This document shows positions 5,954 to 63,043 of a stretch of DNA of 64,000 nucleotides, piece after piece. A program made the position numbers and the translations under genes. Numbering within the stretch: position 1 is the first letter of the stretch; every line of letters begins with the position of its first letter. Below the pieces are notes generated by a model, which did no database searches, was not told the origin of the DNA, and saw only the letters and a program-made list of their open reading frames with translations. The DNA comes from Polytrichum commune (taxonomy: Eukaryota > Streptophyta > Polytrichopsida > Polytrichales > Polytrichaceae). The stretch is from positions 4,092,001-4,156,000 of the forward strand of contig OX485803.1 in the NCBI GenBank assembly GCA_950295325.1, given 5' to 3'.

Positions 5954-6962
5954 TATCCACCTTTAGTAGAAGTTTGTTACTAAGTGTGAAATGTTAATAA
6001 TTTGGAAGCAGCAAGCGAGACTTACTTACCCTCTTAAGCAAGATTAGGGTAATGACTTAGGTTTAAACAAGTTGGGCTGCCATAAATGGATGAAAAACGC
6101 AATTAGGATGAAATTTTTGCACATCTTTCCCACCCTAAACACGAATGATTTTTAATCCAATAAATGAGAAGACGAATTTCAAAAAAAAACTATTTTTGGA
6201 ACGCAAACCTTATTTTTTCAAAAAAATTAAATATTCGTGCAGCAGGTGGCAAACCTGCTATGGTGTTACGGTAGTGTCTCACTTGCAGATTTTGAAACAC
6301 GATTGCCCCTTTTATGGTTTATATTGTAATTTAATCCCAAACCATTTGTCCATGGTAATAACATGAGAATCTACCTTGAGTATAAAATAAAGTTAACACT
6401 ACAACACCTACCCCTAACAATACCTACCTCAAAATGGAAGAAGGAGAACCAATGTTGGTTAAGTCTAGGAAAGTATATCGGCGACTGAAGGTGAACACCA
6501 AAACAACACACAAAACCACCATTGGGGAAGCAACCTAGATCATCTCATGATTTTGGAGAGATGGTCAATGTTACTCTCGCAACATGACATGAAGCATAGT
6601 CCGCCAAGAGCCTAAGGCTAGTGTAAATGCAGCCTACAAAATTTGTGACTTAGCCTATAAAATTTTGAAAGTGTAGGACAAAGAGCCTATAGACAATTTA
6701 AAAACATAGGATATCAACCTATGTGATAAAAAACATGTAGGAAATTTTGCCTACAAAGTTTTTAAAAGAGAGGATTTTAGCCATTCATCCTTCTTCAAAT
6801 TGGGAAATTAGTTGACCTAAGTACATATCTTTAGGCTAATACTCGGGGCTCTTGGGTGGCACATAGACGGATATCAATAATAGCCCTAACTCCCTTCCCG
6901 CCAATCTTTACAAATACCATTCATCACAACTCCTCTCTCATCAGTTCCTCTCTCTGTGAAAC
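5954..6962. other. Spacer, no supported gene
   Basis: AT-rich sequence with poly-A tracts. The 6600-6790 stretch repeats short phrases such as AGCCTAT(A/G) and CCTACAAA, which recur loosely at 7250-7400 on the far side of the CT-rich tract. No coding domain is seen. Confidence 0.4.
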
Positions 6963-7150
6963 ATCTCTCTCTCTCTCTCTCGCTCGCTCGTTGTGTTGAA
7001 ATTCAAGTGTCGCAGTCTCGCAGATCAAGCAACTCTCTCAATCTCTCGTGCAAGCAGCGTTGAAATTCAAGTGTCGCAAATCAAGCAACTCTCTCTCTCT
7101 CTCTGTGTGTGAGGTCAGCGATTTGAACTATGTCTGTGTGTGTGCGAGGT
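6963..7150 (+). repeat. CT/GT microsatellites with a ~61-bp tandem duplication
   Basis: (CT)n runs at about 6963-6982 and 7088-7104 are followed by (TG)n. The phrase GTTGAAATTCAAGTGTCGCA, followed by ATCAAGCAACTCTCTC, is present twice, near 6996 and 7057. This makes a tandem duplication of about 61 bp. CT-rich tracts are common in plant 5' leaders, but no convincing gene follows. Confidence 0.6.
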
Positions 7151-7658
7151 TTTTGCTGGAGTTGGTTAATCCTTGGCCTTCAAACGTGGTGAAGGGCTTA
7201 GCCAGGTTCAATTCTTGCCAAGGATACCACTTAGTACTCAAATTTTGAATTTAAAGCCTACAACATTAAAAGATATGAAGGATTTTAACCTACTAAAAAT
7301 TAGTTTTGAAGGCAATTGGCGGGTAACTTAAAAACTCAAAAGGTTTTCAACTTACAAAAATTTGATATTGTAGGATGCAACCTATGCCATGAGGGAAATA
7401 GCCTATGCCCTTTTAAAGAGGGAGGCAATTAACCTCAATAACTTCAAAAACCTTTTCGGACACTGACATGAAGACGAATCATCCCCTTTGCCTTGTGCTT
7501 TTGTAAGCACCGATGAACTTCCTAGTAACTTCTCAAATCAAGCTCAATGCAACACCTAAATTTGAAAAATATGCAAGCTCAGATTAGGATGTTATGACTT
7601 GGAATCATTGCCACAACTATACGTCACAACATGTTTCACCTTGCACTCTAGGCACCAA

Positions 7659-19706: not shown

Positions 19707-20116
19707 AGTGGATTTAATGTAATGCAATTTCGCCCATTCACTTCACTCCATACAAGACAAAAACTCGTATCAAGGTGCAAACCCTCCCCCACACACACAC
19801 TATGGGCCGGTCGCTGGTCCAAGCGTGGGCATGCTATAAGCGTTCCCATCACCTGCGTTCATCGGTCCCTCGGAGAACATACTGTGGCCTCACTAGACCA
19901 TGGCCTCGGGTGTTACGCTTGCGTTTGCGTCAATACAGAACGGGAAGTATGCCAATCCCTCTCCTATCCCTACCTTACCCAGAGCGTTGCTGAAGGTTTT
20001 GGCTCCGAATTGTGAAGACACACAATAAACTGTGTGGACAAGAGGTAAATTTAGTAATTTTGTTCACTCCCTGTTCACTATACACATGATCCAGACATAC
20101 CTCCATGGCTTCCTCA

Positions 20117-23100
20117 TCAGAGCCAGATGCCAATTTCTGATGTTCCCCCTTCCTTCACGCACGCTCGGAACATGCCTGTGGTGTTGAAAGGCATCACCAC
20201 ATCGCCAGTGGCAGACACAGCCACCAAGCCACCCATGCCTTTGGGCAGACGCTTGACCACCACTTCTTCAGCGGCCTCAGCCAACGATGCGTTCTTGTAC
20301 TCCATGATAGCTGCAACCTCACGTCCCACTGTGGCTTTGATGATGGCTTCGCCCCTTCCGGTTGCCGAGACTGCGCACAAGTGGTTGGCGTAGTTGCCAG
20401 CCCCCACAAGAGGAGTGTCCCCTGTTGACAGAAACACTACAATATTGTTAGGCCGTGTGAGCCCGTGACCATTGAATTCTACAATGGCCTTTGCTGGAAA
20501 ATGGCCAGACCATCCCACTTCACTTTACAGTAGCAGAGCTTGAGGGCGTAAGGGACCAAGGAAAGTTGGATAGGATGAGAAACCTACATGGGTAATGTTC
20601 CATGGTCTATTGGAATTTGCGTCATTCCCATTTTGATGTGGTGGGTCTAACACAAACCGGGAGACCATGGCACTTCAACATCTCACAACCCTTGATTTAT
20701 TATAACTTCTTGTGTAAAAGGGCTCAGATGAATAGGATGGTAATGATATAGATTCGATTGACCCCTGTCTCGCATGTCCTTATACTACACTTGAAGGCTC
20801 CTCACAACGCAAAATTCAATTTCAATTTTCCATAGTGTGGCCTTCAGATGCGTTTACAATTTCATGGTTTCACAATTTACATTATGGCCCTTGGCTATAT
20901 AGTAAAGTGGCCCTCAAGCTCAAGGAACAAATCTCCAAGAACCAGAGTCCTCATTTCTAGAAACGAATGTCAAGCATACTCAAGCTGCAAGTTCCTATTA
21001 GTCCTCACCCCCTCTGAATCTATCTTAAGACATAGAAGCGTTCGCATATTCTCAAATTAAGGCTTAAAATTGCACAATTACCTCTTCCTTGGCTTTTGAT
21101 ACTTGCAGCAAAGTGCCTTTCCATCCCGGTCTTACAGCAAACATTCTTATGATTCTACATTGGATGATCATCAGTATCGTCCATCAACGTTTGCATTACA
21201 ACTTACAAGATGGTTATCTACCTACTCCATTTGGACCAAGCTTGTTCTAAAAAGAAATTTTGAGTGGGTCTTGTGTTAAAGGAACTCCGAGTGTACATCC
21301 TAGCTCAAGGAACACTGAGAAGAAAAATGTTCTTATTTGATATTGATTGCAGTAGAAGCAAGATCGCAAGACTTAAAACCATTTTTCTTCCCAGTGTTCT
21401 CAAGAAACAGGAGACGAGGATTAGTTAATGTCGGTTCGAAAATGGCTTTATGCAAGTTGAAAGCCTAAAAAACATACCTAACTTCCCTAAAAGAAGAATA
21501 CTTTCCAGCCAAGTCTCATTAATTGACTGCAAGAGTCTCACGATGCAAAAGACTACTATATGCTATTGGGGGTGCTATTCATAGTGTTTTCGCCGATTGA
21601 CACTGTAGCGGGAACATCCTCTAGCATACAGAAGAAGGCAGCCGTGTCATGCCAAATCTAGAAAATCGTTTAGAAGTTGAATTGCATCAAATTGCATCAC
21701 AGGAATTGTGGGAGGTACAAGGTTACCTATACGTCCGAGCATTTTGTTCACTAAACCCCCGGTGGAAGTAGCAGCGGCACAATGCCCTTGGTTATCCACG
21801 ACAACGCAGCCTACGGTTTCGAATTCAGGTTTTGGAGCCTGAGTCTTTGATGCCCTTGTTTCATGGAGTTCTTGTGCTGGCTCATCTGAGCTTAGAGCTG
21901 CCAGGTTTTTTGTAGAATGTTGAGTATAGTCTAACTGCAAAATTCACCATAAAGTTCGTCAGCTGTTGTCTCTGGACCAGAAGTCTCCAGATTGCTGCAC
22001 ACAACTGGAGGTTCCATTATAGCTCATACGTGAAGGTAAGGAAAATAAGATTCAGCATCTTGAGACTCTTCCTTAACTAGTCCTATTCTCCTGTTTATGA
22101 AGCATTATATAAATGATCCTTAATATGTAGAGTGCATCATCACGCAACACATTCCCGTCGGTTAGCTCAAAACATTCCAGCCAAGGTGTATGAAACCCCA
22201 AAGTACCTGGACCATGTTCTTCTCATGAGCCCGTGCAAGACGCTCTTGATTTTCTTTCGTTATAAAGTAGCCAGGCTCTTTGGTTTGAACACCCTGCCAC
22301 AACATCCACCCAAACAACTTTATTGAGTGTCAGACGAGACTTTGCTTCCTTGATACGGAACCGAGTTTGTTTATGTATGTTAGTAGCTATGGCGGAGAAG
22401 CTCCCCAACCTGCTGCCTCGCGAATTCTTCTGCCCCTTCGAATGCAAGGTAAATGTGCGGTGTCTTCTCCATGATCAGGCGTGCAAGACTTATGGGATGG
22501 AGCACAGTGGAAAGACCCGAAACGGCACCGCAACTCATCGTGGCCCCATCCATTATACATGCCTCCATCTCCACGGTTCCATTGGTCGTCAACACTGAAC
22601 CTCGCCCGGCATTGAAGACTGGATTGGCCTCCAGTTCTTTCACCTGCGCCCATACCGAGATAAAGTTTTCAAGGATCTTGCAAGAAGAAACACAAGCGAA
22701 TAGATGGCAATAGATGACGGAACTGGATGTGTTTAGATGCCATGGCCTTCAGAGACACGATTCTCTCCTAAAGTTGTAATGGTCATCTTGAGAGACGCGC
22801 AGAAGATATAGTCCTTTACTGGCATCGGACACACGCCGCAAGAAACATGCATGTGTGACCGTTACCTAAATGAAGTAACCTAACCTGCCGCGGAAAATGA
22901 GGACCTGGGGTTGTACAAGAATTGTTTCCTGAACCTGTATCCCGAATGTAAACTATGCCAAGAAACATTAACTGACCACAAGCTCCGCGACGTCGAGGGC
23001 ATTCTGCTGCGATTGCAAAGCGGATACTCCCAGCTCAAGGCATTGGTGCAAGCAGGCCAACGCTGCATCTTTCCTCGCCGTTGGCAAGTCCTTGGATATG

Positions 23101-23138
23101 TCGCCCGCACCCCCATGCAAAGCAATCGCCCAGCCCAT
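20117..23138 (-). CDS. Plant-type isoaspartyl peptidase / L-asparaginase (Ntn hydrolase), 5 exons, 331 aa
   Basis: Exons on the minus strand: 23138-22977, 22643-22410, 22293-22207, 21934-21727, 20421-20117. They total 996 bases; all junctions are GT-AG and the phases fit. The family hydrolyses L-asparagine and beta-aspartyl dipeptides after the precursor cleaves itself into alpha and beta chains. The start is the ATG before [13 protein letters not shown]. Exon 2 carries [28 protein letters not shown] and [10 protein letters not shown]. Exon 4 holds the cleavage/nucleophile site T201 in ETVGCVVVD, then TSTGG (217-221) and NKMLGRIGD with substrate-binding R229 and D232. Exon 5 has [19 protein letters not shown] and ends [10 protein letters not shown]...SEIGIWL. 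The residue before the nucleophile is Glu200 (codon GAA), not the usual Gly. Intron 4 (1305 bases) contains a MITE-like insertion. Length is normal for plant members (about 315-330). Confidence 0.88.
20513..20913. mobile_element. MITE-like element in asparaginase intron 4
   Basis: The ends CCACTTCACTTTACAGTAG and (inverted) AGTAAAGTGGCCC are imperfect inverted repeats resembling the ends of the 7659-8565 element. The internal segment 20580-20720 matches 8240-8420 in inverted orientation (GTCTAACACAAACCGGGAGA, CCATGGCACT, CAACCCTTGATTTATT). No coding is seen. It lies inside an intron and leaves the splice sites at 20422 and 21726 untouched. Confidence 0.45.
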
Positions 23139-25009
23139 AGCCCCCAAGTAGATAGAATAGCACTTTCCTTCCTTCCCTCCCGTCACCACATAACACGATA
23201 TAGTTAATAGAAGCTAAACTCCAGGAACTTCAAAGAGAGCCAAAGGTCCTATCAATGTGTCCACCAATGCAGGAAGCTCCTCGAGGATCGTGCTATGAAA
23301 CTGTCTTGTTTGGACCCTAAAGCTTCCGATCTTGAAGGAAGTGCCTAGAGGCTGGCATGCAACCAAGGAATTGTCACCACCCCACCCTCCACAATGTGCA
23401 TTACTGTGACTCTCTAGTCCTGCCTACATGCGGTCCTGCAGAAGACAGCGCAGGGTGAAAATAAATTATCAGGGATCGCAGTTACCGGATGAACAAGGTA
23501 CCTTTGGAGATGTAAACTCCACGCTCATACAAAGTGCATGATGACGACAGAACTGACTATGTCGAGTTGCGACAAACCTTTTCCTGCCACACGAAAATAA
23601 ACAAATAATATTCTACGGCAGTGTGCACTGTCTGTCAAATCAAACAGGACACGGCAACCACCCATCTGGCTCTCATTCCAAGCACCATGAAACTGACGAG
23701 CCATTAATTTTAGTGTTTAACATCTGCAGGACCTGTGTAATTCAGAGAAGCTGTTGAAGCACTCAATTCGACTTGTGCAGAGATTAATTAACATGATCTT
23801 TCCAAATTTCTACACCCAAAAAAATTTCATAGATGATTGTTCCATTACAAAATGGCCTGTGGAATTAGAATCTATGGATGCAACTTTATCGGTGGCCTGG
23901 TAGCATGAGGCAGGTGAAAGAGACAATGAGCAGCAGGTTTCCGAAAGGAATACATTGATAATTGCTGGATGACGATCTAGTCATTTGTGAGGGTATATCT
24001 TGTAGAACTGCTTTGCGGAAACTACATTGAAGTGTTTAAGTAATGTTCAGGGATGGTCGTGATCACCTTTCAGAAATTCAGCTGTCACGGGTATGGATCC
24101 ACTCAGAAGAAGAATATTGTGCCTGATGAAATTACCCCTAGCTACTGATATCAAAAATCGACGATCATGGATAAGACACACAAGTTGAGGTGTAGAGAGA
24201 AAAAGTAGAGTGGTAATGTCATGAGTCATAATGTACTGTGTATTGAAGTGGAGGATATTTTTACCGAGAATGACTATATTAGAGTTTTGTGCTCCATGGA
24301 TTAGAAGCACTCGCGCACCATAGAACTGTCAATGTGGATATCCATAGTGGTAAGCATTAGATATAGTAAACATGGAATTTCTTTGCAGTAGAATGCAAGC
24401 ATGAGTACATTCTGATCTTTAAGCGACATAGGCCACGCAATTTGGCACCAATGACATTCAAGGCACAGCCACCATGTGAGCGGACTGTGGTGTCGTGATG
24501 AAGCATTAAGCTGCCACACTAGACAGATGAAGGAACAGCCTGTACATGCTCTGTAACAACATTCTGTGCATACTTGTGACAAGGACAGACCATTTCATGT
24601 TCAAAGCAATCAGCTATTATTTTTCAAGGTGGACTGCATCCAGCACCGATTTTCCATGGGGGTTGCAACATTGTAGGCTTGTAACAGAAATTTTCGATGA
24701 TTCTTGCTCAAATTTCACTTTCTAGAGAGTGGAAATGTTGAAAACTGTCTGCTGTTATAATAGAAGCATGGCATCTGCGAAGTCGAACACACTCTTTATG
24801 GTATTTCCAGGACAATTCATAGCTCCAAGTGAGACATGCGAGGATACAATCTGCAAATGTGTAGTGCAATTATCTGAAAGATCTAGACATAACACACGCT
24901 ACAATGCAAGCGCATTCTCATTCAGTATATCGAAGCTTCTTTGCACCGCTCTGGCCGCCATAGCCGCCATGCCAGGTGCTTTAGGCGTCGACCGCACCTT
25001 GCTGGGATA
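23139..25009. other. Spacer, no supported gene
   Basis: This is the promoter side of the asparaginase gene. Short open frames on both strands have no recognisable domain or splice structure. I see no transposon ends. Confidence 0.4.
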
Positions 25010-28035: not shown

Positions 28036-28500
28036 TATATTCATCATAGCAATAATTTTCCTTAGTTTCATAGTATTTCATCTCCGAAATATGTATCATT
28101 TCGTAGCTGCCAGATTACAGTAAAAATGTTAAGACATGCTCGTATGCATAGAAGCTACATAGTTCAACTCACTTCAAGATTGCATCTTCTTTATGCTCGT
28201 TCTACACCTTAGGGTTACCGAACCCACAGCAGAGAGTGAAGCCTTACTTGCTTAGGTTCTAGTAAATGTTGCTTCCCAAATACGCATACATTTCCAAATA
28301 TGCGAAGTGAACCCTTTCGTTTTTGTATATAGATGCAAACCTTTCAACTCTGTTACGAACCTCTCACCGGTTGGCAATTTGTTTCTTGACAACCAAATCT
28401 CAAAGTAAAGAATTGAAACCAACACCAATTTTATTTCTTCCTCTAAGTACAAACCGCAACCAATTAAAGTTTGGTCAACGAAGCTCTACAACCCGACCAT

Positions 28501-29100
28501 AGGAGAGAGACAAAAAAAAATCCTCTCTCCTCCCCCGAGCTTCTCTTATGGCGAAGCACTACTTTTACTTTCTATATTTACATTTAGTAAAAGTATTCTA
28601 TTCATAGCTCTATCTCATAGTTCTACTATGAATCTTCTATCTTTGGTTCTTCTAGAACCTTCTTTCATCTCTTATCTCCATTCCATTCTTCCAATTGGAA
28701 CTGTCTAATTCCAATTGGATTCATCCATTCTTCTTTCTAGTTGGAACTGTCTAATTCCAACTAAATACATCCATCCTTCATTCCAGTTGGAACTGTCTAA
28801 TTCCAACTAATTCATTCATTCAATCTTCTAGTTGGAACTGTCTAATTCCAACTAGCTTTATCTATTCATTGAGAGTTGTCTAACTCCAATGAATAACATT
28901 CATCTTTCCAAATATGGAGTGGTTTAACTTCTGTGCACCTCATCGAGAGTTGTCTAACTCATGTGCACATGTTCTCAATTGGAATGGTCTAGTTCCAATG
29001 CACTAAATGCGGAGCTGTCTAACTCCAGTGCACATGTTGTCAATCTGGAGTTGTCTTACTCCTTTCCATTCATCTTCAACTGAGAGTTGTCTAGCTCTCA
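28501..29100. repeat. Array of short hairpins with varying stems and a conserved TGTCTA loop
   Basis: Eleven units start near 28691, 28738, 28783, 28828, 28865, 28914, 28941, 28975, 29008, 29044 and 29079. Each is a short inverted repeat around a loop core (T)GTCT(A). Stems differ but remain self-complementary: TTGGAA/TTCCAA extended by CAA/TTG, TAG/CTA or CTAG/CTAG; ATTCATTG..GTT/AAC..CAATGAAT; GGAG/CTCC; TGAGAG/CTCTCA. Upstream hairpins with other loops lie at about 28501-28530 (GGAGAGAG/CTCTCTCC), 28561-28594 (ACTTTTACT/AGTAAAAGT), 28616-28630 (CATAG/CTATG) and 28645-28659 (GGTTCT/AGAACC). No coding function is seen. Confidence 0.7.
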
Positions 29101-29202
29101 TCTTTTTCTGCTTACACACTGGCACATGTAATTAGAATATTTCTCAATAATTTTAGTTACATTACAAATTCCTCCCAAACTTTTTGCTTTACTGGGTTGA
29201 GA

Positions 29203-29315
29203 TTGAAATTGAAATTGAGAATTGAGAATTGAAATTGAGAATTGAAATTGAGAATTGAAATTGAAATTGAGAATTGAGAATTGAGAATTGAAATTGAAAT
29301 TGAAATTGGGATTAG
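29203..29315. repeat. GAATT/GAAATT microsatellite
   Basis: A run of alternating ATTGAA and ATTGAGA units spans about 110 bp. It gives low-complexity frames (Asn/Phe/Ser repeats) on the minus strand that are not genes. Confidence 0.85.
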
Positions 29316-38661: not shown

Positions 38662-39945
38662 TAACAACCAACTTAGGCATCCCGTGACCTCAAAGAATGT
38701 TGTTGTTCATTCCAGGCCCCTGGAGTTGACCCCGCCACATGAGATTGCCTACCTATCATGTGGGTGGGTGTGTGCGGTTTGCATCCATCCAACAAAAATC
38801 GTTTGTGAACGATTGTTTACAACCGAGAGAGATTGGTGAGTTGGCACTGAGGGAGCCAACTTCAAAAACCTTGCCGAAGTTCTAAGCTTACTGTGTTCCG
38901 GGTCCAAACTGCCAACATTAAGGAGACAAAAAGATTTTAGGACAGGTGCATGAGAGGGGCATCCACTCAAGGTGGTCCCATGCCAGCTGCTTCCACACAC
39001 ACTTCAGCATAAGGTAGGCAAGTCTTATTAATGTAACAAGTGGGTAGCATATTGGTGTGGCACGCCAACTAGGTTTCGCGAGAGCTCCCCCATTAGTGGC
39101 GCGACACGTGTCACGCGACCAGGACCTACTGACTGATTACTCCTGTACAGAAAAGGTGGTGGCTGTGGCCGGTGCGTGTGGGTTGGCGTGCGAGGTTCGC
39201 AGAGAGAGCGAGAGAGGGAGAGAGGGAGGGGGAGGCTGGGACCGCAGGGGTTATGCCAGGCGGAACGGGACGGGCATGTGGGAGCGAGTGACGACGACTG
39301 TTCTACGGCAGGGCAGTCACAGCAGCTGGCAGGGCGCGGACCCATTCCACGGGAGAACGGGTGTCCGTCTCGGAGTGCATGTTGCGGCCCCTGGCCTGCC
39401 CTCCGCTGCGCTCCCTTCCCCTCGGCACACTGCTGCTGCCTCTCCTCGCCTCGCCCTCGTCGCAGCAGATCCGGTGTTGCAACGCCCCGCACGAAGCAGC
39501 TGTGGGTGGTGAGTTATCAGTGTCGTCGGTGCGTGGATGTGGCGTGCGTGAGGTTGGGTGATTGTGGGTGCGAGCGCGCACTTAGGGTTGCGTTTCCGGG
39601 TTCGCGGTACGGCTGGGCTTCGATCGGCAGCGGGGAGGTTCTGCGCACTCCCCTCGGAACTCCGTAAGTGCGGGGAAGTCGTGTGTTGTATGTTGGCCTG
39701 GAGATAGCGGCGAGAAGGATCCGGGATCCTGCGGGGCGCGTAGGATGGTTTGTGATTGTTGCGGCATGTGGTGGCGTGGGTTTGGATTCGTGGCGCCGGT
39801 GTAGGTTTTGGTGGGGGGGAGGGGGTTAGCCGGACGCCATTTGTGGATCTGTGTCGTAGGTGGGTTATTTTTTGCATGGGAGTGTGGGTTGTGCGTTTGG
39901 TGAAGGTGTGCGGTGGTGTGTGGGTGGTTTGCAGTGGGCTTGTGA

Positions 39946-41628
<1,683 letters not shown>

Positions 41629-43319
41629 AGGTCTCGCGGGAGATCGCTTGTAATTTGGTCGATTCCAGTCTTTGTAGGTGTATACTCGAATTGGATTAAA
41701 CAAGGGTTGGTCTTGAATATGGTTACACCAGCTGCTTTTGGGGATAGCAATCATTTTGAGAAGACAGCAGCAGCAGATTCTACTTTTCTGGGTGGGGCGG
41801 GTAAGGTGCCATGAGAAGCTCGTTTGTCGGGGCGAGTTTCGCGTTTCATGGCTTTATATTTTACAGGTCCGGTGGATTAACGCCGCCGATTCCGTCCTGA
41901 AGTAGTTTAGTGGCAGTCATCTATTTTCAGTAGACAGTCACCCTTGACAGTAGGGTCTTAGATTTCAATGTGAAAGGCATATGCCTGTCTGGAGTATCTT
42001 TTGCAGAGGATGTTTCAAAGGGAGTACAGAGGTTGTCAGTGTAGACCTGGCAGATTCAATATAAAAGTGTCTTATCTCATTGGCCACGCGTAGGAGGTTT
42101 TGGGGTCAGCCAAAGGGAGACATATTCAGTTGCGCCGCGGCATCAGTGAATGGTTGAAGAATTCAGCTGCAATGCGGCTCTGATCTTCTGGAATTATTTT
42201 GTCTTTTAAGCATGTGTTGTGTCTACCGGCTGCCACACATCATAAGCGGTGTCCCCGTTTCAGTTAGCAAGTGGAGGGAAGGTGGTTGAGGTTTGAAGTT
42301 GTGTGGTTGTCGGAAACCTTTCTTGCATCAAACCTTTTTGGGGGGTCGTTTTGTTTTGTTTTGTTTGAATGATGATGGAAGCTACGAGTGGGTTCCGGCC
42401 AGCTGTGATCTGGGGTTGTCTGAGCAGGTCTCCATGATTGGTAAGGCACTTGCTTTTTCGTGCACATGGTGGTAGTGGAAGCTCCTGGAGGGCGTGGGTA
42501 GCAATGAGCATGGCGATTTGTGGGTTGATTGTGGACGATAATGGTTACTGCAGGGGTTGTGGGTTTGGGTTTCTGCAGCATAAGTGAACCGAGATTCAGC
42601 ATGTGCATTTAGAGGTTCAAACTTGGAAGGATTGTGTGAGCGTTTTATAGTGAGCATGTATTAAAGTTGTACACCAGGTGCTCTGTTGTTGGATTGTGAT
42701 TGAACTCCGCAGCGTAGTTTAAAGCCGCTTAGACTTCAGATAGGGCGTAATGAAGCAAGGGGCGTGATAATCAGTGATCGGAAGTGAAGGGGGGAAAATA
42801 ATGGAATTGAAGAATCAACCACCCCCGATTGCTGGATGTATTGTGACTGGCATGGTTGATGAGGGGAGTTTATCATGACAATGAGTATGAGAAGGACAAG
42901 AAGATGAAGTTGGCAGGGTCCAATGAGGGTGCAGAGAATGAGGAAGGGGCGAAGTGTTTTCAACCACTACATATGTGTGAAAACCTGGGCTTTGGTGACT
43001 TTGGCCTTTACATGGTCGTCCATGATTGCAGTAGAGCGAGGACAGCAGGGTTGTCCTTGGTCTTCCCTCGTTCTTTCCTGGGAGCTTGAAAGCCTGCAGT
43101 TCCTAGATCGCATGTGCATTCCTGACTACCTATGTTTCAAACCTAAGAGCCTCTCGCAGAACACCGTACTTTCCTTTCCTACCAGTTTGAACACATTTGT
43201 GGTGGTTGATGTAGAGGAATCAGTGGCCATCCAGTGACAATATTGTCCTGAAGGATTCTGTGGGTGGATTGTTTTGGTCAAATGCTATACCATCCAAAAC
43301 GTTGGATCTTAGAAATGGT

Positions 43320-43690
43320 ATTTACCCATTAACTTTAGTGAGTATCACCTTCGTCTTTGCACTCACATGGTTCTAACCCATTTAAATTAAGTGCATGCTC
43401 GAGACACAAAGTATGCACGTCACCTCGTGCTTTATGGACCCTAGGGCAATATCCAGGGCACTTGTATCAGTGGATGGGCTAAGGGAGGCAAAGTGCATGT
43501 GAGGACTAACAATGAAAATGAGAGGCTGTCCTTGGATGTCATAGACAAGCCTTCACGCATGTGACATGGAAGGCACTTTGTGATATAGGTTACATCAATC
43601 ACGTTTGACATGCGAGCAAAATAATTTGTGATTGTTTTCATGTGAACTCCAACTAACTTGATGAAGTTATGCACCATCCAACTTGGTTAG
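43320..43690 (+). repeat. Repeat family Q, copy 1 (left core)
   Basis: Shares TTTACCCATTAAC, GAGACACAAA.TAT.CAC.TCACCTC, GGGCTAAGGGAGGCAAA.TGC, ATGTGAGGAC, GTCATAGACAAGCCTTCAC, CATGTGACATG and ACATCAATCAC with copies at 49490-49792, 53373-53670 (inverted) and 58006-58376 (inverted). A matching minus-strand open frame is partly shared, but I see no known domain. Confidence 0.6.
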
Positions 43691-46085
43691 AAACATTGAA
43701 TGCATGAAACAACATCTACTCCTAAATTTTGATCACTCTTAGAATGATTGTGTATTTTTCTGTGTACTCCTTTCACGTTAAAGTGATTATCACCAATTAA
43801 CGAGAACATGATTTTAAAAGGGTTTGTCAGACAATGAATTAAGCAAAATGGATGTCTTGAATATTCCAAAATGAAGATGATGATGACATTTGCAAGTATC
43901 ATAACACATTGACAACGGATGTGTTTAGAAGTGAGCAACCATGCTTCTATAGGGAAATATGTTTATAAACTCAACTAACTTGATGTAACATATTTCATCA
44001 TTGAAACCATTGGTCGTTGGTCACTACTTCAGCTCACGAGTTTCAGTCCCGAATAAGTGTCAGTATCTAATATTTAACGACATGCAGGCTTGGAGCAACT
44101 CGAGGATGCAAAACTTGTAATATCATGTAGTCCAACTTTCTTAAGAAAAGTAGGAGTTTTAAACTCCTACTTAAACTTCGGCTTCATTGTCCAGCATGTT
44201 GTGTAGCCCATATCTCAATTGTAAGGTTTTCACTTCAAAAAATCACAATCAAATTTAGCCATCCTAATTATTGGGTGTGTAATTTGAAAAATGCTTATAG
44301 GATGGCATGACGGATATCCATGCTAAGAAATGCATCAAGGTGTGTGGGGCTTGGAGTGTTACTAGCTCAACATTGACACCTTGTGTTGTGTCTATTATTG
44401 ACATCCACTTTGTGTACATGTTCAACAACTAATGTGTGGTTATTTATGCACCATTGGAGGCAGTATTAGGCCTTCGGTGAAACAATTTATGGACAAGTGG
44501 TGGCAACTGTCGGTGGGTGGAACTAATTTGGAGAGTGGCGAGGACCTTTCATAATCGACAAAGCAAGAAGGATTGCAACCGATATCAACAACTAGATCAT
44601 GGCACGAATGCCGAGAACCTTGTTAATGTTGCAAATCATCCATGAAAGGATCAACGGCATGTAGTTGCAGGCTAGGGAGGGAGTAAATGGTGCTCATGTG
44701 CTATTGTTGGAATTACATGTGGTGGGGTGAAAATTCAAAAAAATGACCTTTGCTCATTTTTTAGGTGTAAAACTTGTTAGGTGAAAGTTGAAAAATTAGC
44801 TCAATTTAATACATACAATATTACATGGTAAGATCGTGTTGCTACAATCATATTACCGTCACCAAAATATGTGTGCCCATGTCCTTGTGTGAATGAAAGA
44901 TACAATCATATCACACTTGTGTAATTTTTTGTAGATTGGATACGAGATCCTTACTTATTGATTGTGGTCAGATGGCTCGTTGCACACTTGCAAATCGGGT
45001 CTAGGGCTCGTCTCACCTTTTTTTCTGCCATGGTTGGGGACCACCATGCAAGGCGTTGAGGTTGGTAGCGTTGATTTCAAGCCCATATGCCTATAACCTT
45101 GTTGTTTTTCAAGACCACATGGTGGTTGCCTCCAACCGCTTTTTTGCAATGGAATCACTATAGTCATGAAAACTATCGATTTTTCAATCCCCAAATGATG
45201 TTCATGGCCGAAACAATTGTTGTGGGGATAATTTTATTATGTCCATTGTAAAGTAACAAAATATATATTAATTTTTTTGAAATTGTCTACATGTTCATAT
45301 TCAAAGGACCAGTAAGCTCAAATAATTCATAAGAAATGCTAATCGCATCATTTTTGTTCACAAATTTCATATGTGATCATGTGTGCATGGTATAGAAAAT
45401 GAAAATATAAAATGTGACATCATCTTTGATGATACGAGTGACAACTCTTCGATTTCATCAACAATTGTTGTACACGCATTAAAGAAATGACCCTAATCTT
45501 CATGCATTCTAGAAGACGTTACAAGTCAACACGAGATGAACATGTGTACAAAATATCCAAACAATTTGATATCATCTCCATATTTATCTTCGGTTTTATG
45601 GAGTTTTTATCTTGGAAATGCTCACACAAAGTTCATGACCTAATATAGAAGGTCCAACTGTACAAACATGATCCTTAACTTTATGTCAACAATTTTACTA
45701 CATGAATGTTTTATAGAACAAACATGTAAATCTCACTCTAAAACTGATCTCGGAAAGACATAAAACCATAGGGAAATATACATTCAGGATTTGAAGAAGG
45801 TCTTGGGAACATTTACGAGCTCAAATACATCCTCTGGAAGATACCATACCCATGGGGATTCGCGGGGCCCATGACCAAAGAGTCGCGAAGTGACAAAACA
45901 TGGACATCTGTTCACTTGTCAACGAGAATGGAAACAATGCAGCTTAGGTCCATCACATCTATCTGAGGCTCATGATTTCTCTCTTGCGATCCCTGTTACT
46001 GTCCAACATGGAAAGTTGGAATGTTGTTGTGTATGAATGGCAGCGCCACTTATCAGTTCTCAGTTGCCATTCTTTCAACGACCTC
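43691..46085. other. Gene-free part of left arm
   Basis: AT-rich, non-coding as far as I can see. It is duplicated exactly at 55611-58005. The short minus-strand frame at 44955-45194 (79 codons) has no recognised domain and is identical in both arms only because the DNA is. Confidence 0.4.
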
Positions 46086-46585
46086 CGTTTATCTAAACTG
46101 TCAAATCTAGTGTACGTCGAACCTATCAACGTCATTTAGTCTTGCAGTCATGGTAACTGTCAGTTCGTTCTCAGTCTCCCGGGAATCTATAGACCCCCTA
46201 CCCATGAGGGCAGAATGTTTGGAAATGTTGATGTGAAAAGTGCCTCGGACTATGTTAGTGAATCCACGCATCCTTGTCATACATGTGACAATTATTAAGC
46301 AGCGTGCGTTCGCTCATGTGGGTCCTGAGAATACAACCATGGAATGTAGATTCAGACTCAATCCGAGTTTCCTTACACTAGGTTGGGGCATCCCATGGTT
46401 ATGTGCGAAGGGCCCACATGAACAAACACACGTTGCTCAATAATGTTACATGTATCTTAGTCTTTGCATACATCTAAACTGTCAATTCTAGTATGCAAGG
46501 AATCTTCGGACTCCCGGTTCGTGCACTGTAGAATGTTTGAGAGTGTTAACCTAGTAAGTGCCTCGGGCTATGTTGGTGAGTTGTT
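46086..46585 (+). repeat. Direct repeat inside the arm, ~320-380 bp period
   Basis: ATCTAAACTGTCAA(A/T)TCTAGT occurs near 46089 and 46470. AGAATGTTTG, AAGTGCCTCGG(A/G)CTATGTT and GGTGAG/AGTGAA occur near 46210 and 46530. The same pair is mirrored in the right arm (about 55110-55610). Confidence 0.5.
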
Positions 46586-46845
46586 ACTATCATGTACTCG
46601 ATCTTGCAACGAGTGTGAATTATAAATGTGTTGGTTTGTCTTTGATTGGTTTGAGGGAAGAGGGCCTCCAACAGACACTCGAAGCTCTGCACCGGCTTGT
46701 TGTAGGATATTGAAACACGCAATTAGTGAAGAGACAGCTACCAATGTCGAATCAAGCCCCATGTCCGTTTTTCTCATGGTTTCTCATAATTTTGGAGTTC
46801 ATTGGAATAGGTAATCCATTATCAAAGTGAAGTGTCTGTTTCTTA

Positions 46846-53670: not shown

Positions 53671-56600
53671 AATATAATTATTTTGACCTCATTTTTAGGG
53701 TTTCATGGTGTCTGCAAACATCTATGAGTGAATGCCTTATTTGGTGTACATGATAATAAGAATTGCCTCTCTCAACCTCAAATAAAGTATTATGAATCAT
53801 GGATGTTTAAATTTTCAAATTTTATTGGACATTACTTGCATGGATGTTTTCTTTTTTAATTTTTTTTAAAAATAGTCTACAAAATTCTCTTTAGAATGTA
53901 AGATCTGTCACAAGAACTTTTATTTGTAAACAAAAATGGTATTGTATTACTTTGCATTCAAGTAATAATTTAAAGTATACTTAAATCTTAGTTTGTAACA
54001 AGTGACCACTTATATTTGGACATCTCAGCACTTTTATTTTGAGAACATTATGGTTATGTCACATGAAACCATTGAATAATGGTTTAGATGGGTTACACAA
54101 AACATTTGAGTACATTTATAATAAATATGATATTTCCTCAAAGAGAATTTGATCCATTTATTTCTCAAACTTGATTACTTATGGGATCTATTAACATAGA
54201 AATCTTTAAAAAAAAAAAACAATCAGTTTCATTTGCATCTCCATCCACCCTTTCAAAAAAATTCAAATGAACCCAAAATCTTTGTGAAATTTGGTGTTTA
54301 ATGATGTATTCCCTATATTGATTGATTATAAGATAAAAGTCACGATATTACAAACAAACAAAAATAGCTTAATAGCTACAATAATTGGTCGTTGCCACTT
54401 TGTTGCAAATCAAACAATTTAAAGCCAATATGCTTCTAGATCTCAAGGGGCATTTCAGATCTAAAGAAATACCTTCAAGTAGGTCTATGGTGTAAATGTC
54501 ATCTCAACATGTTGAATATAGAGGCAAGCTCCAAGATAAGTATTGCTTGCATGGACTTTGTCATTGTAATAAACTACAGTTGTTGGATATAGTTTCAATC
54601 ACAATAATGCTTAGAGTGCACTCAACATAAAAGGTTGGCATCACATGATTGGCAATTAATGTGAATATCCGAGCTAACGTTAATGGGTAAATCTCATTAT
54701 TCAGGTATAAATTTTTGATTACAGTCCCATTGCTTGAATTTTTATCATGTGCACCAAATTGAATGAAAGTGATTGCAAAACTTGTGTGGAAGTTTTTAAA
54801 GAGTTATATTAAATGTATAGGTATTTGGAATAATAATAAAAAATTAAAATATTGACTTTGACAACGAATAACCTAATCATAAAAGTTCCATAAATTATGA
54901 GAAAAACGGACATGGGGCTCGATTCGACATTGGTAGCTGTCTCTTCACTAATTGCGTGTTTCAATATCGTACAACAAGCCGGTGCAGAGCTTCAAGTGTC
55001 TGTTGGAGGCCCTCTTCCCTCAAACCAATCAAAGACGAACCAACACATTTATAATTCACACTCGCTGCAAGATCGAGTCATCACTTTTTTAGGATCGAGT
55101 ACATGATAATAACAACTCACCAACATAGCCCGAGGCACTTACTAGGTTAACACTCTCAAACATTCTACAGTGCACGAACCGGGAGTCCGAAGATTCCTTG
55201 CATACTAGAATTGACAGTTTAGATGTATGCAAAGACTAAGATACATGTAACATTATTGAGCAACGTGTGTTTGTTCATGTGGGCCCTTCGCACATAACCA
55301 TGGGATGCCCCAACCTAGTGTAAGGAAACTCGGATTGAGTCTGAATCTACATTCCATGGTTGTATTCTCAGGACCCACATGAGCGAACGCACGCTGCTTA
55401 ATAATTGTCACATGTATGACAAGGATGCGTGGATTCACTAACATAGTCCGAGGCACTTTTCACATCAACATTTCCAAACATTCTGCCCTCATGGGTAGGG
55501 GGTCTATAGATTCCCGGGAGACTGAGAACGAACTGACAGTTACCATGACTGCAAGACTAAATGACGTTGATAGGTTCGACGTACACTAGATTTGACAGTT
55601 TAGATAAACGGAGGTCGTTGAAAGAATGGCAACTGAGAACTGATAAGTGGCGCTGCCATTCATACACAACAACATTCCAACTTTCCATGTTGGACAGTAA
55701 CAGGGATCGCAAGAGAGAAATCATGAGCCTCAGATAGATGTGATGGACCTAAGCTGCATTGTTTCCATTCTCGTTGACAAGTGAACAGATGTCCATGTTT
55801 TGTCACTTCGCGACTCTTTGGTCATGGGCCCCGCGAATCCCCATGGGTATGGTATCTTCCAGAGGATGTATTTGAGCTCGTAAATGTTCCCAAGACCTTC
55901 TTCAAATCCTGAATGTATATTTCCCTATGGTTTTATGTCTTTCCGAGATCAGTTTTAGAGTGAGATTTACATGTTTGTTCTATAAAACATTCATGTAGTA
56001 AAATTGTTGACATAAAGTTAAGGATCATGTTTGTACAGTTGGACCTTCTATATTAGGTCATGAACTTTGTGTGAGCATTTCCAAGATAAAAACTCCATAA
56101 AACCGAAGATAAATATGGAGATGATATCAAATTGTTTGGATATTTTGTACACATGTTCATCTCGTGTTGACTTGTAACGTCTTCTAGAATGCATGAAGAT
56201 TAGGGTCATTTCTTTAATGCGTGTACAACAATTGTTGATGAAATCGAAGAGTTGTCACTCGTATCATCAAAGATGATGTCACATTTTATATTTTCATTTT
56301 CTATACCATGCACACATGATCACATATGAAATTTGTGAACAAAAATGATGCGATTAGCATTTCTTATGAATTATTTGAGCTTACTGGTCCTTTGAATATG
56401 AACATGTAGACAATTTCAAAAAAATTAATATATATTTTGTTACTTTACAATGGACATAATAAAATTATCCCCACAACAATTGTTTCGGCCATGAACATCA
56501 TTTGGGGATTGAAAAATCGATAGTTTTCATGACTATAGTGATTCCATTGCAAAAAAGCGGTTGGAGGCAACCACCATGTGGTCTTGAAAAACAACAAGGT

Positions 56601-58005
56601 TATAGGCATATGGGCTTGAAATCAACGCTACCAACCTCAACGCCTTGCATGGTGGTCCCCAACCATGGCAGAAAAAAAGGTGAGACGAGCCCTAGACCCG
56701 ATTTGCAAGTGTGCAACGAGCCATCTGACCACAATCAATAAGTAAGGATCTCGTATCCAATCTACAAAAAATTACACAAGTGTGATATGATTGTATCTTT
56801 CATTCACACAAGGACATGGGCACACATATTTTGGTGACGGTAATATGATTGTAGCAACACGATCTTACCATGTAATATTGTATGTATTAAATTGAGCTAA
56901 TTTTTCAACTTTCACCTAACAAGTTTTACACCTAAAAAATGAGCAAAGGTCATTTTTTTGAATTTTCACCCCACCACATGTAATTCCAACAATAGCACAT
57001 GAGCACCATTTACTCCCTCCCTAGCCTGCAACTACATGCCGTTGATCCTTTCATGGATGATTTGCAACATTAACAAGGTTCTCGGCATTCGTGCCATGAT
57101 CTAGTTGTTGATATCGGTTGCAATCCTTCTTGCTTTGTCGATTATGAAAGGTCCTCGCCACTCTCCAAATTAGTTCCACCCACCGACAGTTGCCACCACT
57201 TGTCCATAAATTGTTTCACCGAAGGCCTAATACTGCCTCCAATGGTGCATAAATAACCACACATTAGTTGTTGAACATGTACACAAAGTGGATGTCAATA
57301 ATAGACACAACACAAGGTGTCAATGTTGAGCTAGTAACACTCCAAGCCCCACACACCTTGATGCATTTCTTAGCATGGATATCCGTCATGCCATCCTATA
57401 AGCATTTTTCAAATTACACACCCAATAATTAGGATGGCTAAATTTGATTGTGATTTTTTGAAGTGAAAACCTTACAATTGAGATATGGGCTACACAACAT
57501 GCTGGACAATGAAGCCGAAGTTTAAGTAGGAGTTTAAAACTCCTACTTTTCTTAAGAAAGTTGGACTACATGATATTACAAGTTTTGCATCCTCGAGTTG
57601 CTCCAAGCCTGCATGTCGTTAAATATTAGATACTGACACTTATTCGGGACTGAAACTCGTGAGCTGAAGTAGTGACCAACGACCAATGGTTTCAATGATG
57701 AAATATGTTACATCAAGTTAGTTGAGTTTATAAACATATTTCCCTATAGAAGCATGGTTGCTCACTTCTAAACACATCCGTTGTCAATGTGTTATGATAC
57801 TTGCAAATGTCATCATCATCTTCATTTTGGAATATTCAAGACATCCATTTTGCTTAATTCATTGTCTGACAAACCCTTTTAAAATCATGTTCTCGTTAAT
57901 TGGTGATAATCACTTTAACGTGAAAGGAGTACACAGAAAAATACACAATCATTCTAAGAGTGATCAAAATTTAGGAGTAGATGTTGTTTCATGCATTCAA
58001 TGTTT

Positions 58006-58376
58006 CTAACCAAGTTGGATGGTGCATAACTTCATCAAGTTAGTTGGAGTTCACATGAAAACAATCACAAATTATTTTGCTCGCATGTCAAACGTGATTG
58101 ATGTAACCTATATCACAAAGTGCCTTCCATGTCACATGCGTGAAGGCTTGTCTATGACATCCAAGGACAGCCTCTCATTTTCATTGTTAGTCCTCACATG
58201 CACTTTGCCTCCCTTAGCCCATCCACTGATACAAGTGCCCTGGATATTGCCCTAGGGTCCATAAAGCACGAGGTGACGTGCATACTTTGTGTCTCGAGCA
58301 TGCACTTAATTTAAATGGGTTAGAACCATGTGAGTGCAAAGACGAAGGTGATACTCACTAAAGTTAATGGGTAAAT
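58006..58376 (-). repeat. Repeat family Q, copy 4 (right core)
   Basis: Exact inverted counterpart of 43320-43690 as part of the arm. Confidence 0.6.
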
Positions 58377-60067
58377 ACCATTTCTAAGATCCAACGTTTT
58401 GGATGGTATAGCATTTGACCAAAACAATCCACCCACAGAATCCTTCAGGACAATATTGTCACTGGATGGCCACTGATTCCTCTACATCAACCACCACAAA
58501 TGTGTTCAAACTGGTAGGAAAGGAAAGTACGGTGTTCTGCGAGAGGCTCTTAGGTTTGAAACATAGGTAGTCAGGAATGCACATGCGATCTAGGAACTGC
58601 AGGCTTTCAAGCTCCCAGGAAAGAACGAGGGAAGACCAAGGACAACCCTGCTGTCCTCGCTCTACTGCAATCATGGACGACCATGTAAAGGCCAAAGTCA
58701 CCAAAGCCCAGGTTTTCACACATATGTAGTGGTTGAAAACACTTCGCCCCTTCCTCATTCTCTGCACCCTCATTGGACCCTGCCAACTTCATCTTCTTGT
58801 CCTTCTCATACTCATTGTCATGATAAACTCCCCTCATCAACCATGCCAGTCACAATACATCCAGCAATCGGGGGTGGTTGATTCTTCAATTCCATTATTT
58901 TCCCCCCTTCACTTCCGATCACTGATTATCACGCCCCTTGCTTCATTACGCCCTATCTGAAGTCTAAGCGGCTTTAAACTACGCTGCGGAGTTCAATCAC
59001 AATCCAACAACAGAGCACCTGGTGTACAACTTTAATACATGCTCACTATAAAACGCTCACACAATCCTTCCAAGTTTGAACCTCTAAATGCACATGCTGA
59101 ATCTCGGTTCACTTATGCTGCAGAAACCCAAACCCACAACCCCTGCAGTAACCATTATCGTCCACAATCAACCCACAAATCGCCATGCTCATTGCTACCC
59201 ACGCCCTCCAGGAGCTTCCACTACCACCATGTGCACGAAAAAGCAAGTGCCTTACCAATCATGGAGACCTGCTCAGACAACCCCAGATCACAGCTGGCCG
59301 GAACCCACTCGTAGCTTCCATCATCATTCAAACAAAACAAAACAAAACGACCCCCCAAAAAGGTTTGATGCAAGAAAGGTTTCCGACAACCACACAACTT
59401 CAAACCTCAACCACCTTCCCTCCACTTGCTAACTGAAACGGGGACACCGCTTATGATGTGTGGCAGCCGGTAGACACAACACATGCTTAAAAGACAAAAT
59501 AATTCCAGAAGATCAGAGCCGCATTGCAGCTGAATTCTTCAACCATTCACTGATGCCGCGGCGCAACTGAATATGTCTCCCTTTGGCTGACCCCAAAACC
59601 TCCTACGCGTGGCCAATGAGATAAGACACTTTTATATTGAATCTGCCAGGTCTACACTGACAACCTCTGTACTCCCTTTGAAACATCCTCTGCAAAAGAT
59701 ACTCCAGACAGGCATATGCCTTTCACATTGAAATCTAAGACCCTACTGTCAAGGGTGACTGTCTACTGAAAATAGATGACTGCCACTAAACTACTTCAGG
59801 ACGGAATCGGCGGCGTTAATCCACCGGACCTGTAAAATATAAAGCCATGAAACGCGAAACTCGCCCCGACAAACGAGCTTCTCATGGCACCTTACCCGCC
59901 CCACCCAGAAAAGTAGAATCTGCTGCTGCTGTCTTCTCAAAATGATTGCTATCCCCAAAAGCAGCTGGTGTAACCATATTCAAGACCAACCCTTGTTTAA
60001 TCCAATTCGAGTATACACCTACAAAGACTGGAATCGACCAAATTACAAGCGATCTCCCGCGAGACCT

Positions 60068-61750
<1,683 letters not shown>

Positions 61751-63040: not shown

Positions 63041-63043
63041 TTA
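63041..63043. other. Empty target site for the left-arm transposon
   Basis: The reverse complement reads GAGAGGTTAAGAGCCAACTT. The left arm reads GGGGTTAA, the element, then TAACAACCAACTT. One copy of TAA is present here and two flank the element on the left. This is the pre-insertion form. Confidence 0.8.

What the first reader, a model, noticed from the sequence alone, without database searches (positions are those of the whole stretch)
28691..29100. Hairpin array with conserved loop and covarying stems
Eleven short inverted repeats share the loop core TGTCTA/GTCT, but the stems differ while staying complementary (TTGGAA/TTCCAA, GGAG/CTCC, TGAGAG/CTCTCA, a 13-bp ATTCATT type). Ordinary tandem decay would break the stems. 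Keeping pairing while sequence changes suggests selection for structure in RNA or DNA, or a mutational process that copies one arm from the other (template switching). Further hairpins with different loops precede it at 28501-28659.
Basis: partly seen in the sequence, partly recalled or inferred. Interest (0 to 1): 0.85.

Follow-up and report, generated by a model that had tools for sequence, protein, structure and literature searches.

The report
Hairpin array in a retrotransposon LTR
The eleven hairpins lie in the regulatory end of an old retrotransposon copy, and comparison with its relatives suggests that evolution kept them folding as RNA in the active element, possibly as landing sites for a protein.

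Summary
Eleven hairpin units (28691-29104) share the core TAGACA on the minus strand, and their arms match their own partners better than swapped partners (24 of 20,000 permutations as good). The array is not free-standing. It lies in the U3 part of an 816-bp solo LTR, 28351-29166, in minus orientation, with a 5-bp target duplication (AACTC/AATTC). The LTR belongs to a Ty3/gypsy chromovirus with hundreds of LTR candidates in a 408-Mb genome. One sampled member with two LTRs (688 of 688 compared bases identical) and a 1539-aa open frame carries the array, so the family probably moved recently. Across 62 LTR rows, stem changes found in three or more copies are mostly G.U on the sense strand (GU 22, AC 6, other 4). 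Changes private to one copy are mostly disruptive (GU 11, AC 23, other 52). This fits selection for pairing in the sense RNA, where U3 is 3' UTR, then neutral decay; weaker tests are mixed. Five relatives at 54-63% pol identity lack the array. The closest known case is the palindrome arrays of Sirevirus (Ty1/copia) LTRs, where the stem is the conserved part. The function, probably protein binding, is inferred.

The parts
28351..29166 (-). solo LTR of a Ty3/gypsy chromovirus (816 bp; on the minus strand it starts TGTAATGTAAC and ends GTTCGTAACA)
   Evidence: match boundaries shared by dispersed copies; TG...CA ends; internal region on the minus strand in the full-length copy L029
28346..28350 (.). 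target-site duplication, AACTC
   Evidence: sequence; 14 of 31 two-ended copies have identical 5-bp flanks and 7 differ at one base, this copy being one of the 7
29167..29171 (.). target-site duplication, AATTC (one mismatch)
   Evidence: sequence
29077..29104 (-). hairpin unit 1 (GAGAG/CTCTC stem)
   Evidence: R1 match 34.5 bits
29041..29068 (-). hairpin unit 2 (GGAG/CTCC)
   Evidence: R1 match 33.5 bits
29005..29032 (-). hairpin unit 3 (GGAG/CTCC, outer stem TGCACT/AGTGCA)
   Evidence: R1 match 39.0 bits; fold
28975..29002 (-). hairpin unit 4 (ATTGGAA/TTCCAAT, loop TAGACC)
   Evidence: R1 match 36.5 bits
28940..28967 (-). hairpin unit 5 (GAGT/ACTC inside GTGCAC/GTGCAC)
   Evidence: R1 match 34.3 bits; fold
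28910..28937 (-). hairpin unit 6 (degenerate here)
   Evidence: R1 match 17.7 bits; better kept in other copies
28866..28893 (-). hairpin unit 7 (long stem ATTCATT type with one bulge)
   Evidence: R1 match 34.2 bits; 0 of 200 shuffles fold as well
28828..28855 (-). hairpin unit 8 (CTAGTTGGAAT/GTTCCAACTAG)
   Evidence: R1 match 39.9 bits; fold
28783..28810 (-). hairpin unit 9
   Evidence: R1 match 39.1 bits; fold
28737..28764 (-). hairpin unit 10
   Evidence: R1 match 40.1 bits; fold
28691..28718 (-). hairpin unit 11 (TCCAATTGGAAT/GTTCCAATTGGA)
   Evidence: R1 match 38.6 bits; fold
28677..28854 (-). tandem 46-bp part of the array (units 8-11)
   Evidence: Tandem Repeats Finder, period 46, 3.9 copies
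28572..28586 (-). decayed promoter region (TAAATGTAAATATAG); the relative L047 reads TATATATAAATATAG here
   Evidence: LTR comparison; promoter role inferred
28430..28435 (-). AATAAA, possible polyadenylation signal
   Evidence: sequence; role inferred

Best explanation
The array is the U3 part of a solo LTR left by a Ty3/gypsy chromovirus. In the living element U3 is transcribed at the 3' end of the genomic RNA, between the polypurine tract and R, so the RNA carries about eleven small hairpins in its 3' UTR, the best of them an AGAC tetraloop closed by U-A on a stem of partly variable sequence. Selection in the mobile lineage kept the arms pairing in the sense RNA and kept the loop, while stem sequence drifted through G.U intermediates and units multiplied in tandem. 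After insertion, copies such as this one decay without constraint. The likeliest use is multivalent binding of a protein that reads loop and pairing: the element's own zinc-knuckle Gag (packaging or assembly) or a host RNA-binding protein (export, stability). Shown: LTR identity, family, orientation, covariation, difference between spread and private changes. Inferred: extent of U3, transcription, protein binding, which protein.
For: LTR: boundaries 28351/29166, 5-bp duplications in 21 of 31 two-ended copies, counting 7 with one mismatch; full copy L029 with two LTRs and gag/protease/RT/RNaseH/integrase/chromodomain pieces on the minus strand, primer-site sequence AATTGGTATCAGAGC and a polypurine tract next to LTR ends. 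Recent activity with the array present: L047/L048 LTRs 688 of 688 compared bases identical, 1539-aa open frame between them. Eight of 8 elements fetched at 75% or more pol identity, chosen without regard to the array, carry it. U3 placement: array upstream of TATATATAAATATAG. Covariation: 42 unit types, score 0.368 against shuffled mean 0.243 (0 of 500 as high) and at most 0.224 for slid partners; pair -2 is GC 22, AU 17, GU 3, unpaired 0; score also above every shuffle on all 59 recurrent and all 255 distinct units. Sense strand: variants in three or more copies GU 22, AC 6, other 4; private GU 11, AC 23, other 52; Fisher 3.5e-4 for GU:AC and 8.8e-9 for GU against AC plus other. Tree: internal branches WC to GU 22, AC 7, other 7 (GU against AC p = 0.008); terminal 57, 46, 55 (p = 0.32).
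Against: The sense-strand bias appears only for variants in three or more copies. At exactly two copies it is GU 6, AC 11, other 11; at two or more GU 28, AC 17, other 15, p = 0.14. The tree test of GU:AC between internal and terminal branches is only p = 0.055. Two of the five covariation measures do not exceed the shuffles: pairs changed on both sides 7 against 6.9 (342 of 500 as high) and further pair types 19 against 19.6 (419 of 500); by the tool's text these are the two least inflated by relatedness. Loop columns are not significantly more constrained than spacers (p = 0.17), nor stems (p = 0.09), when only substitution numbers are counted. The innermost pair is C-A in 61 of 62 rows of unit 1 and 27 of 62 of unit 4. 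RNA folding is equally unusual on both strands. Variants can spread between tandem units by recombination, which copies both arms at once and inflates covariation. No transcript, protein or small-RNA data were available.
Confidence: 0.55

Rival explanations
1. DNA-level enhancer array: each palindrome is a dyad binding site for a dimeric transcription factor in U3, upstream of the promoter, as proposed for Sirevirus LTR repeats. RNA pairing is a by-product.
For: The array lies upstream of a TATA-like box. The inner GA/TC of the dyad is invariant among 42 unit types. [quoted passage not shown]
Against: A spacer between half-sites should vary and half-sites stay fixed; here the central AGAC is nearly fixed (each position at least 94% over 11 units in 62 rows) and the outer arms vary together. 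Excess of G.U over A.C in spread changes is not expected of double-stranded DNA.
Confidence: 0.22
2. Host-silencing substrate: the hairpins are templates for small RNAs that help the host silence the element, as suggested for palindrome-rich Sirevirus LTRs; the element keeps them for another reason or cannot lose them.
For: Small RNAs concentrate on palindrome-rich Sirevirus LTRs in maize (passages). Units 8-11 have stems of 11-13 pairs.
Against: Being a silencing target does not explain selection for pairing in the mobile lineage. Single units are short for Dicer (recalled). Not testable here, no small-RNA data.
Confidence: 0.08
3. Mutational origin only: template switching or conversion between arms and between tandem units keeps arms complementary, without selection on structure.
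For: Part of the array is tandem and unit number varies, 8-13 per LTR among 50. Double Watson-Crick changes occur on single branches (6 terminal, 3 internal). Two covariation measures do not exceed shuffles.
Against: Such copying makes perfect complements and gives no G.U bias on one strand; spread changes show it. Private changes, which should show the mutational process best, are mostly disruptive (GU 11, AC 23, other 52).
Confidence: 0.12
4. Chance product of palindromic tandem repeats; no function.
For: U3 regions often hold tandem repeats (recalled); part of the array is a plain 46-bp tandem.
Against: Arm-swap and shuffle tests; array present in 8 of 8 elements fetched by pol at 75% or more, including one that probably moved recently.
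Confidence: 0.03

Closest known systems
Palindromic repeated motifs in LTRs of Sireviruses (Ty1/copia; Bousios et al. 2010 PMC2829016, passages read; Bousios et al. 2016, recalled and seen as cited in PMC10760457 and PMC5311732)
   Same: High-copy palindromes clustered in the LTR upstream of the TATA box, able to form hairpins, in plant LTR retrotransposons.
   Different: Those belong to Ty1/copia and keep the stem (CGG-CCG core in all but one element described, for example CACCGGAC-NNN-GTCCGGTG) with a variable or absent spacer. Here a Ty3/gypsy element keeps the loop (AGAC) and lets much of the stem covary. PMC10760457 (passages) reports no obvious hairpin peak for Ty3/RLG elements in maize.
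Chromoviruses (chromodomain Ty3/gypsy elements)
   Same: gag, protease, RT, RNaseH, integrase and chromodomain matches, primer site of the initiator-methionine tRNA type (recalled), 5-bp target duplication.
   Different: LTRs of the five more distant pol relatives whose ends could be read here are about 320-410 bp without the array; the 816-bp hairpin-bearing LTR looks like a gain of one clade.
Multi-hairpin RNA signals of RNA viruses and retroviruses bound by capsid or Gag protein (recalled)
   Same: Repeated small hairpins with a fixed loop and variable stems in a genomic RNA.
   Different: Binding, packaging and transcript untested here; located in U3/3' UTR and not in the 5' leader.

Membership tests
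Ty3/gypsy chromovirus LTR | TG...CA-ended direct repeats flanking a gag-pol body | tested here: met
   L029: LTRs at 1006-1833 and 6342-7171, 822 of 828 aligned bases identical plus 2 gap columns
Ty3/gypsy chromovirus LTR | Ty3-type capsid, protease, RT, RNaseH, integrase, chromodomain | tested here: met
   Pfam matches in 4 of 5 separate open pieces given: PF19259, PF08284, RVT_1 (just under its cut-off, 29.2 of 29.6 bits), RT_RNaseH, Integrase_H2C2, PF00385; the fifth piece had none
Ty3/gypsy chromovirus LTR | 5-bp target-site duplication | tested here: met
   14 exact and 7 one-mismatch of 31; of the other 10, 7 abut internal sequence and 3 do not match in place
Ty3/gypsy chromovirus LTR | primer binding site and polypurine tract at the inner LTR ends | tested here: met
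   AATTGGTATCAGAGC beside LTRs in L029 (same place as L016), L042 and L044; GGAAGGGGGAGAT before the L047 LTR and before TGTAATG in L051
Sirevirus LTR palindrome array | Ty1/copia Sirevirus element | tested here: not met
   the element is Ty3/gypsy
Sirevirus LTR palindrome array | conserved CGG-CCG stem core with free spacer | tested here: not met
   stem core GA/TC, loop AGAC conserved
Sirevirus LTR palindrome array | palindrome cluster upstream of the LTR promoter | tested here: met
   array ends about 100 bases upstream of TATATATAAATATAG in L047; promoter itself untested
Sirevirus LTR palindrome array | small-RNA hot spot | not testable with these tools
   no small-RNA data
RNA packaging or transport signal | pairing selected on the sense RNA strand | tested here: inconclusive
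   strong for variants in three or more copies, weaker on a tree, absent at exactly two copies
RNA packaging or transport signal | specific binding by Gag or a transport protein | not testable with these tools
   needs binding or CLIP data
Curated RNA family (Rfam) | match at gathering score | tested here: not met
   0 matches in the whole window

The most novel reading that the evidence does not exclude
A plant-type Ty3/gypsy retrotransposon clade has acquired, within U3, a multivalent RNA signal: a string of about eleven AGAC-loop hairpins in the 3' UTR of its genomic RNA that a protein reads by loop and pairing for packaging or transport. No such cis-acting organisation of an LTR retrotransposon appeared in the listings of my paper searches.
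Probability: 0.27. Interest if true: 0.75.

Novelty: new variant of a known kind. Interest (0 to 1): 0.5.

Why it matters
What marks LTR-retrotransposon RNA for packaging or transport in plants is poorly known (recalled). A repeated hairpin with a fixed loop, covarying stems and hundreds of candidate natural variants, including a probably recently moved copy, makes that testable. The comparison of changes spread through the family with changes private to single copies is a simple way to tell RNA-level from DNA-level selection in other palindrome-rich LTRs, including Sireviruses.

Tried and rejected
Prokaryotic readings (ORFs, tRNA, Rfam) gave nothing for the array; the window is from a 408-Mb genome of 64 contigs, seven of them 42-78 Mb. 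A single-copy structured RNA gene was rejected because the whole 816 bp is a dispersed repeat. A DNA-only foldback element or MITE was rejected because of TG...CA ends, primer site and polypurine tract. Loop-loop kissing between units was judged unlikely because AGAC and TAGACA are not self-complementary (inspection). A generality test on a second LTR, beside chromovirus pol relatives and with no match to this one (973 bp; 3311 candidates by the first look), found it rich in hairpins too (15 of 6 bp or more in L063) with 7 double Watson-Crick changes in stem cells, but no sense-strand bias (GU 17, AC 31, other 45; 9 copies), so it does not extend the RNA claim. Alignment A3 had one row, L061, cut from the wrong place; it was redone and A3 was not used; A2 was only looked at. 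The window hit at 44147-44173 and 57523-57549 is a perfect palindrome without the AGAC loop.

Full report
What was checked. Eleven inverted repeats with the + strand core TGTCTA lie between 28691 and 29104. In the rest of the report the minus strand is the sense strand, for reasons given below, and the core reads TAGACA. Perfect hairpins of at least 6 bp number 9 in the 1,100 bases around the array, against a shuffle mean of 2.4 and a maximum of 7 in 30 shuffles. In half-overlapping tiles of 816 bases across the window, hairpins of at least 7 bp average 0.68; the two highest tiles (6 and 5) overlap the LTR, which itself holds 6.

What it is. A search of the window's own genome (408 Mb, 64 contigs; unnamed, plant-like by inference) returned 47 matches from 40 scored of 635 candidates. 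Of twenty copies fetched with flanks, the match starts at window 28349-28351 in 16 and ends at 29166-29168 in 19. The unit starts TG and ends CA on the minus strand. Of 31 two-ended copies, 14 have identical 5-bp flanks and 7 differ by one base (the window copy among them: AACTC and AATTC); of the other ten, seven abut internal sequence and three do not match in place. Two copies on one contig stand 5.3 kb apart in the same direction (L029). Between them, on the minus strand, are pieces with Ty3 capsid, retroviral protease, reverse transcriptase (29.2 bits, just under its 29.6 cut-off), RNaseH, integrase zinc-binding and chromodomain matches. A primer site of the initiator-methionine type (name recalled) follows one LTR and a polypurine tract precedes the other. 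The finding is therefore part of a solo LTR of a Ty3/gypsy chromovirus in minus orientation.

Where in the LTR. In the sense direction the array occupies about bases 63-476 of 816. In relative L047 the promoter-like TATATATAAATATAG lies at about 568-582 of 803, roughly 100 bases downstream of the array, and AATAAA further on. By the usual LTR plan the array is in U3. U3 is transcribed only from the 3' LTR, as part of the 3' UTR. No transcript was seen; this is inference.

The family. Searches with three divergent LTRs gave 681-711 first-look candidates each, of which 40 were scored each time (overlapping). The 50 LTRs extracted from fetched loci carry 8-13 units by a loop-and-core rule, 10 in the window copy because unit 6 fails it; most of these 50 were found with the array as query, so this is no test. 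A fair test is the 8 elements fetched by pol identity of 75% or more: all 8 carry the array (L047/L048, L049-L054, L059). L047 and L048, the LTRs of one element, are identical over 688 of 688 compared bases and lie on either side of a 1539-aa open frame, so the clade probably moved recently with the array present. Five elements at 54-63% (L055, L056, L057, L058, L060) and one at 48% (L061) lack it. In L055, L056, L057, L060 and L061 both LTR ends can be read by eye, about 320-410 bp apart. The array looks like a gain within one clade.

Covariation. Forty-two observed unit types (chosen from 59 seen at least twice, of 255 distinct) give a covariation score of 0.368 against a shuffled mean of 0.243, 0 of 500 as high, and at most 0.224 with slid partners. 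Paired cells are 78.4% against 69.2% shuffled (0 of 500) and at most 50.2% slid. Two other measures do not exceed the shuffles: pairs changed on both sides, 7 against 6.9, and further pair types, 19 against 19.6; they do exceed the slid versions (at most 4 and 13). In these 42, pair -2 is G-C in 22, A-U in 17, G-U in 3 and never unpaired; pairs -3 and -4 do not vary. With all 59 and all 255 units the score stands (0.368 and 0.335 against maxima of 0.284 and 0.258 in 200 shuffles). In the window copy alone, own arms pair at 71 of 88 positions against a mean of 63.0 for swapped arms, 24 of 20,000 as good; six other LTRs gave 0 to 385 of 20,000 with G.U counted and 25 to 698 without. Examples: unit 1 changes from GAGAG/CTCTC to GGGAG/CTCCT, unit 9 from TT/AA to CC/GG at its base with TT/GG intermediates.

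Which strand. Each LTR copy decays after insertion, so variants found in one copy mostly show mutation, and variants found in several mostly show what the mobile lineage tolerated. In stems, private variants are GU 11, AC 23, other 52. Variants in three or more copies are GU 22, AC 6, other 4. Fisher p = 3.5e-4 for GU against AC, 8.8e-9 for GU against all breaks. G.U is a pair in the sense RNA; on the other strand the same change is A.C. Outside the hairpins the substitution spectrum does not favour G.U-making changes (in two or more copies C>T 11 and A>G 29, G>A 38 and T>C 12). Against this: at exactly two copies the count is GU 6, AC 11, other 11; at two or more, GU 28, AC 17, p = 0.14. On a tree, internal branches give 22/7/7 (GU against AC p = 0.008) and terminal 57/46/55 (p = 0.32), with p = 0.055 for the difference in GU:AC. 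Substitution numbers alone do not show significant constraint in loops (p = 0.17) or stems (p = 0.09) relative to spacers. I read this as good but not conclusive evidence for selection on pairing in the sense RNA.

How it may work. Units 8-11 fold as an AGAC tetraloop closed by U-A, on 11-13 pairs counting the closing ones. A fixed loop on variable stems is what a protein reading loop plus helix would leave. AGAC is not self-complementary, so kissing dimers are unlikely. A piece upstream of the protease match holds CFRCHKPGHRSFEC (sequence), recalled as a zinc-knuckle pattern. I commit to multivalent protein binding in the 3' UTR as the most likely function (packaging or assembly by Gag, or export and stability by a host protein), inferred, not shown.

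Comparison with the literature. The nearest known thing is the palindromic repeated motif of Sirevirus LTRs, upstream of the TATA box, with a CGG-CCG stem core in all but one of the elements described and a variable middle (PMC2829016, passages). PMC10760457 (passages) reports that in maize Ty1/copia LTRs concentrate hairpins and that Ty3 elements lack an obvious peak, and cites the small-RNA excess on Sirevirus palindromes; PMC5311732 (passages) calls those palindromes small-RNA hot spots. The passages seen of PMC3601003 and PMC6911290 did not describe such an array. The 2016 Sirevirus paper is known to me from those citations and recall only. Our case differs in superfamily and in what is conserved. 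The listings showed no description of a fixed-loop, covarying-stem array in LTRs (two of the eight, 21 and 65, returned no paper at all); subscription papers are mostly not held, so this is weak evidence of novelty.

Verdict. The structure belongs to a known kind of place (palindrome-rich U3), in an unexpected superfamily and with the reverse pattern of conservation. The window copy itself is a decayed solo LTR and probably does nothing (inference).

Noticed in passing
window 38662-46777 and 54897-63043: Inverted repeat with arms of about 8.1 kb, 99.4-99.5% identical, each arm with a small-GTPase (Rab-like by eye) reading frame (41089-41628 and 60068-60607); a recent large palindromic duplication or an assembly effect.
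   Followed up: partly
L063:258-1230 and relatives in L021, L025, L056, L060, L061, L062, L064, L065: A second, very numerous LTR (973 bp, 3311 candidates by the first look), beside chromovirus pol relatives, is also packed with hairpins of unrelated sequence, 15 of at least 6 bp, with a few double Watson-Crick changes between relatives.
   Followed up: partly
L018:3591-4671, L037:1101-2200, L030:629-8383; also C2:10222546-10224115 and C2:66676387-66678316: Several LTR copies sit as inverted neighbours, some directly adjacent, others up to 6 kb apart, in both LTR families. Cause unknown.
   Followed up: no
window 29197-29308: A (TTGAAA/TTGAGAA) minisatellite lies 30 bases beyond the LTR end.
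   Followed up: no
window about 20100-23200, minus strand: Reading-frame pieces look by eye like an isoaspartyl peptidase/L-asparaginase gene with introns.
   Followed up: no
L051:457-1228 (C1:4192556-4193327): The other 39 scored places match this stretch only up to about base 545-550 of 772, and L051 carries about 225 extra bases between the polypurine tract and the array-bearing part; this copy has probably been rearranged.
   Followed up: no
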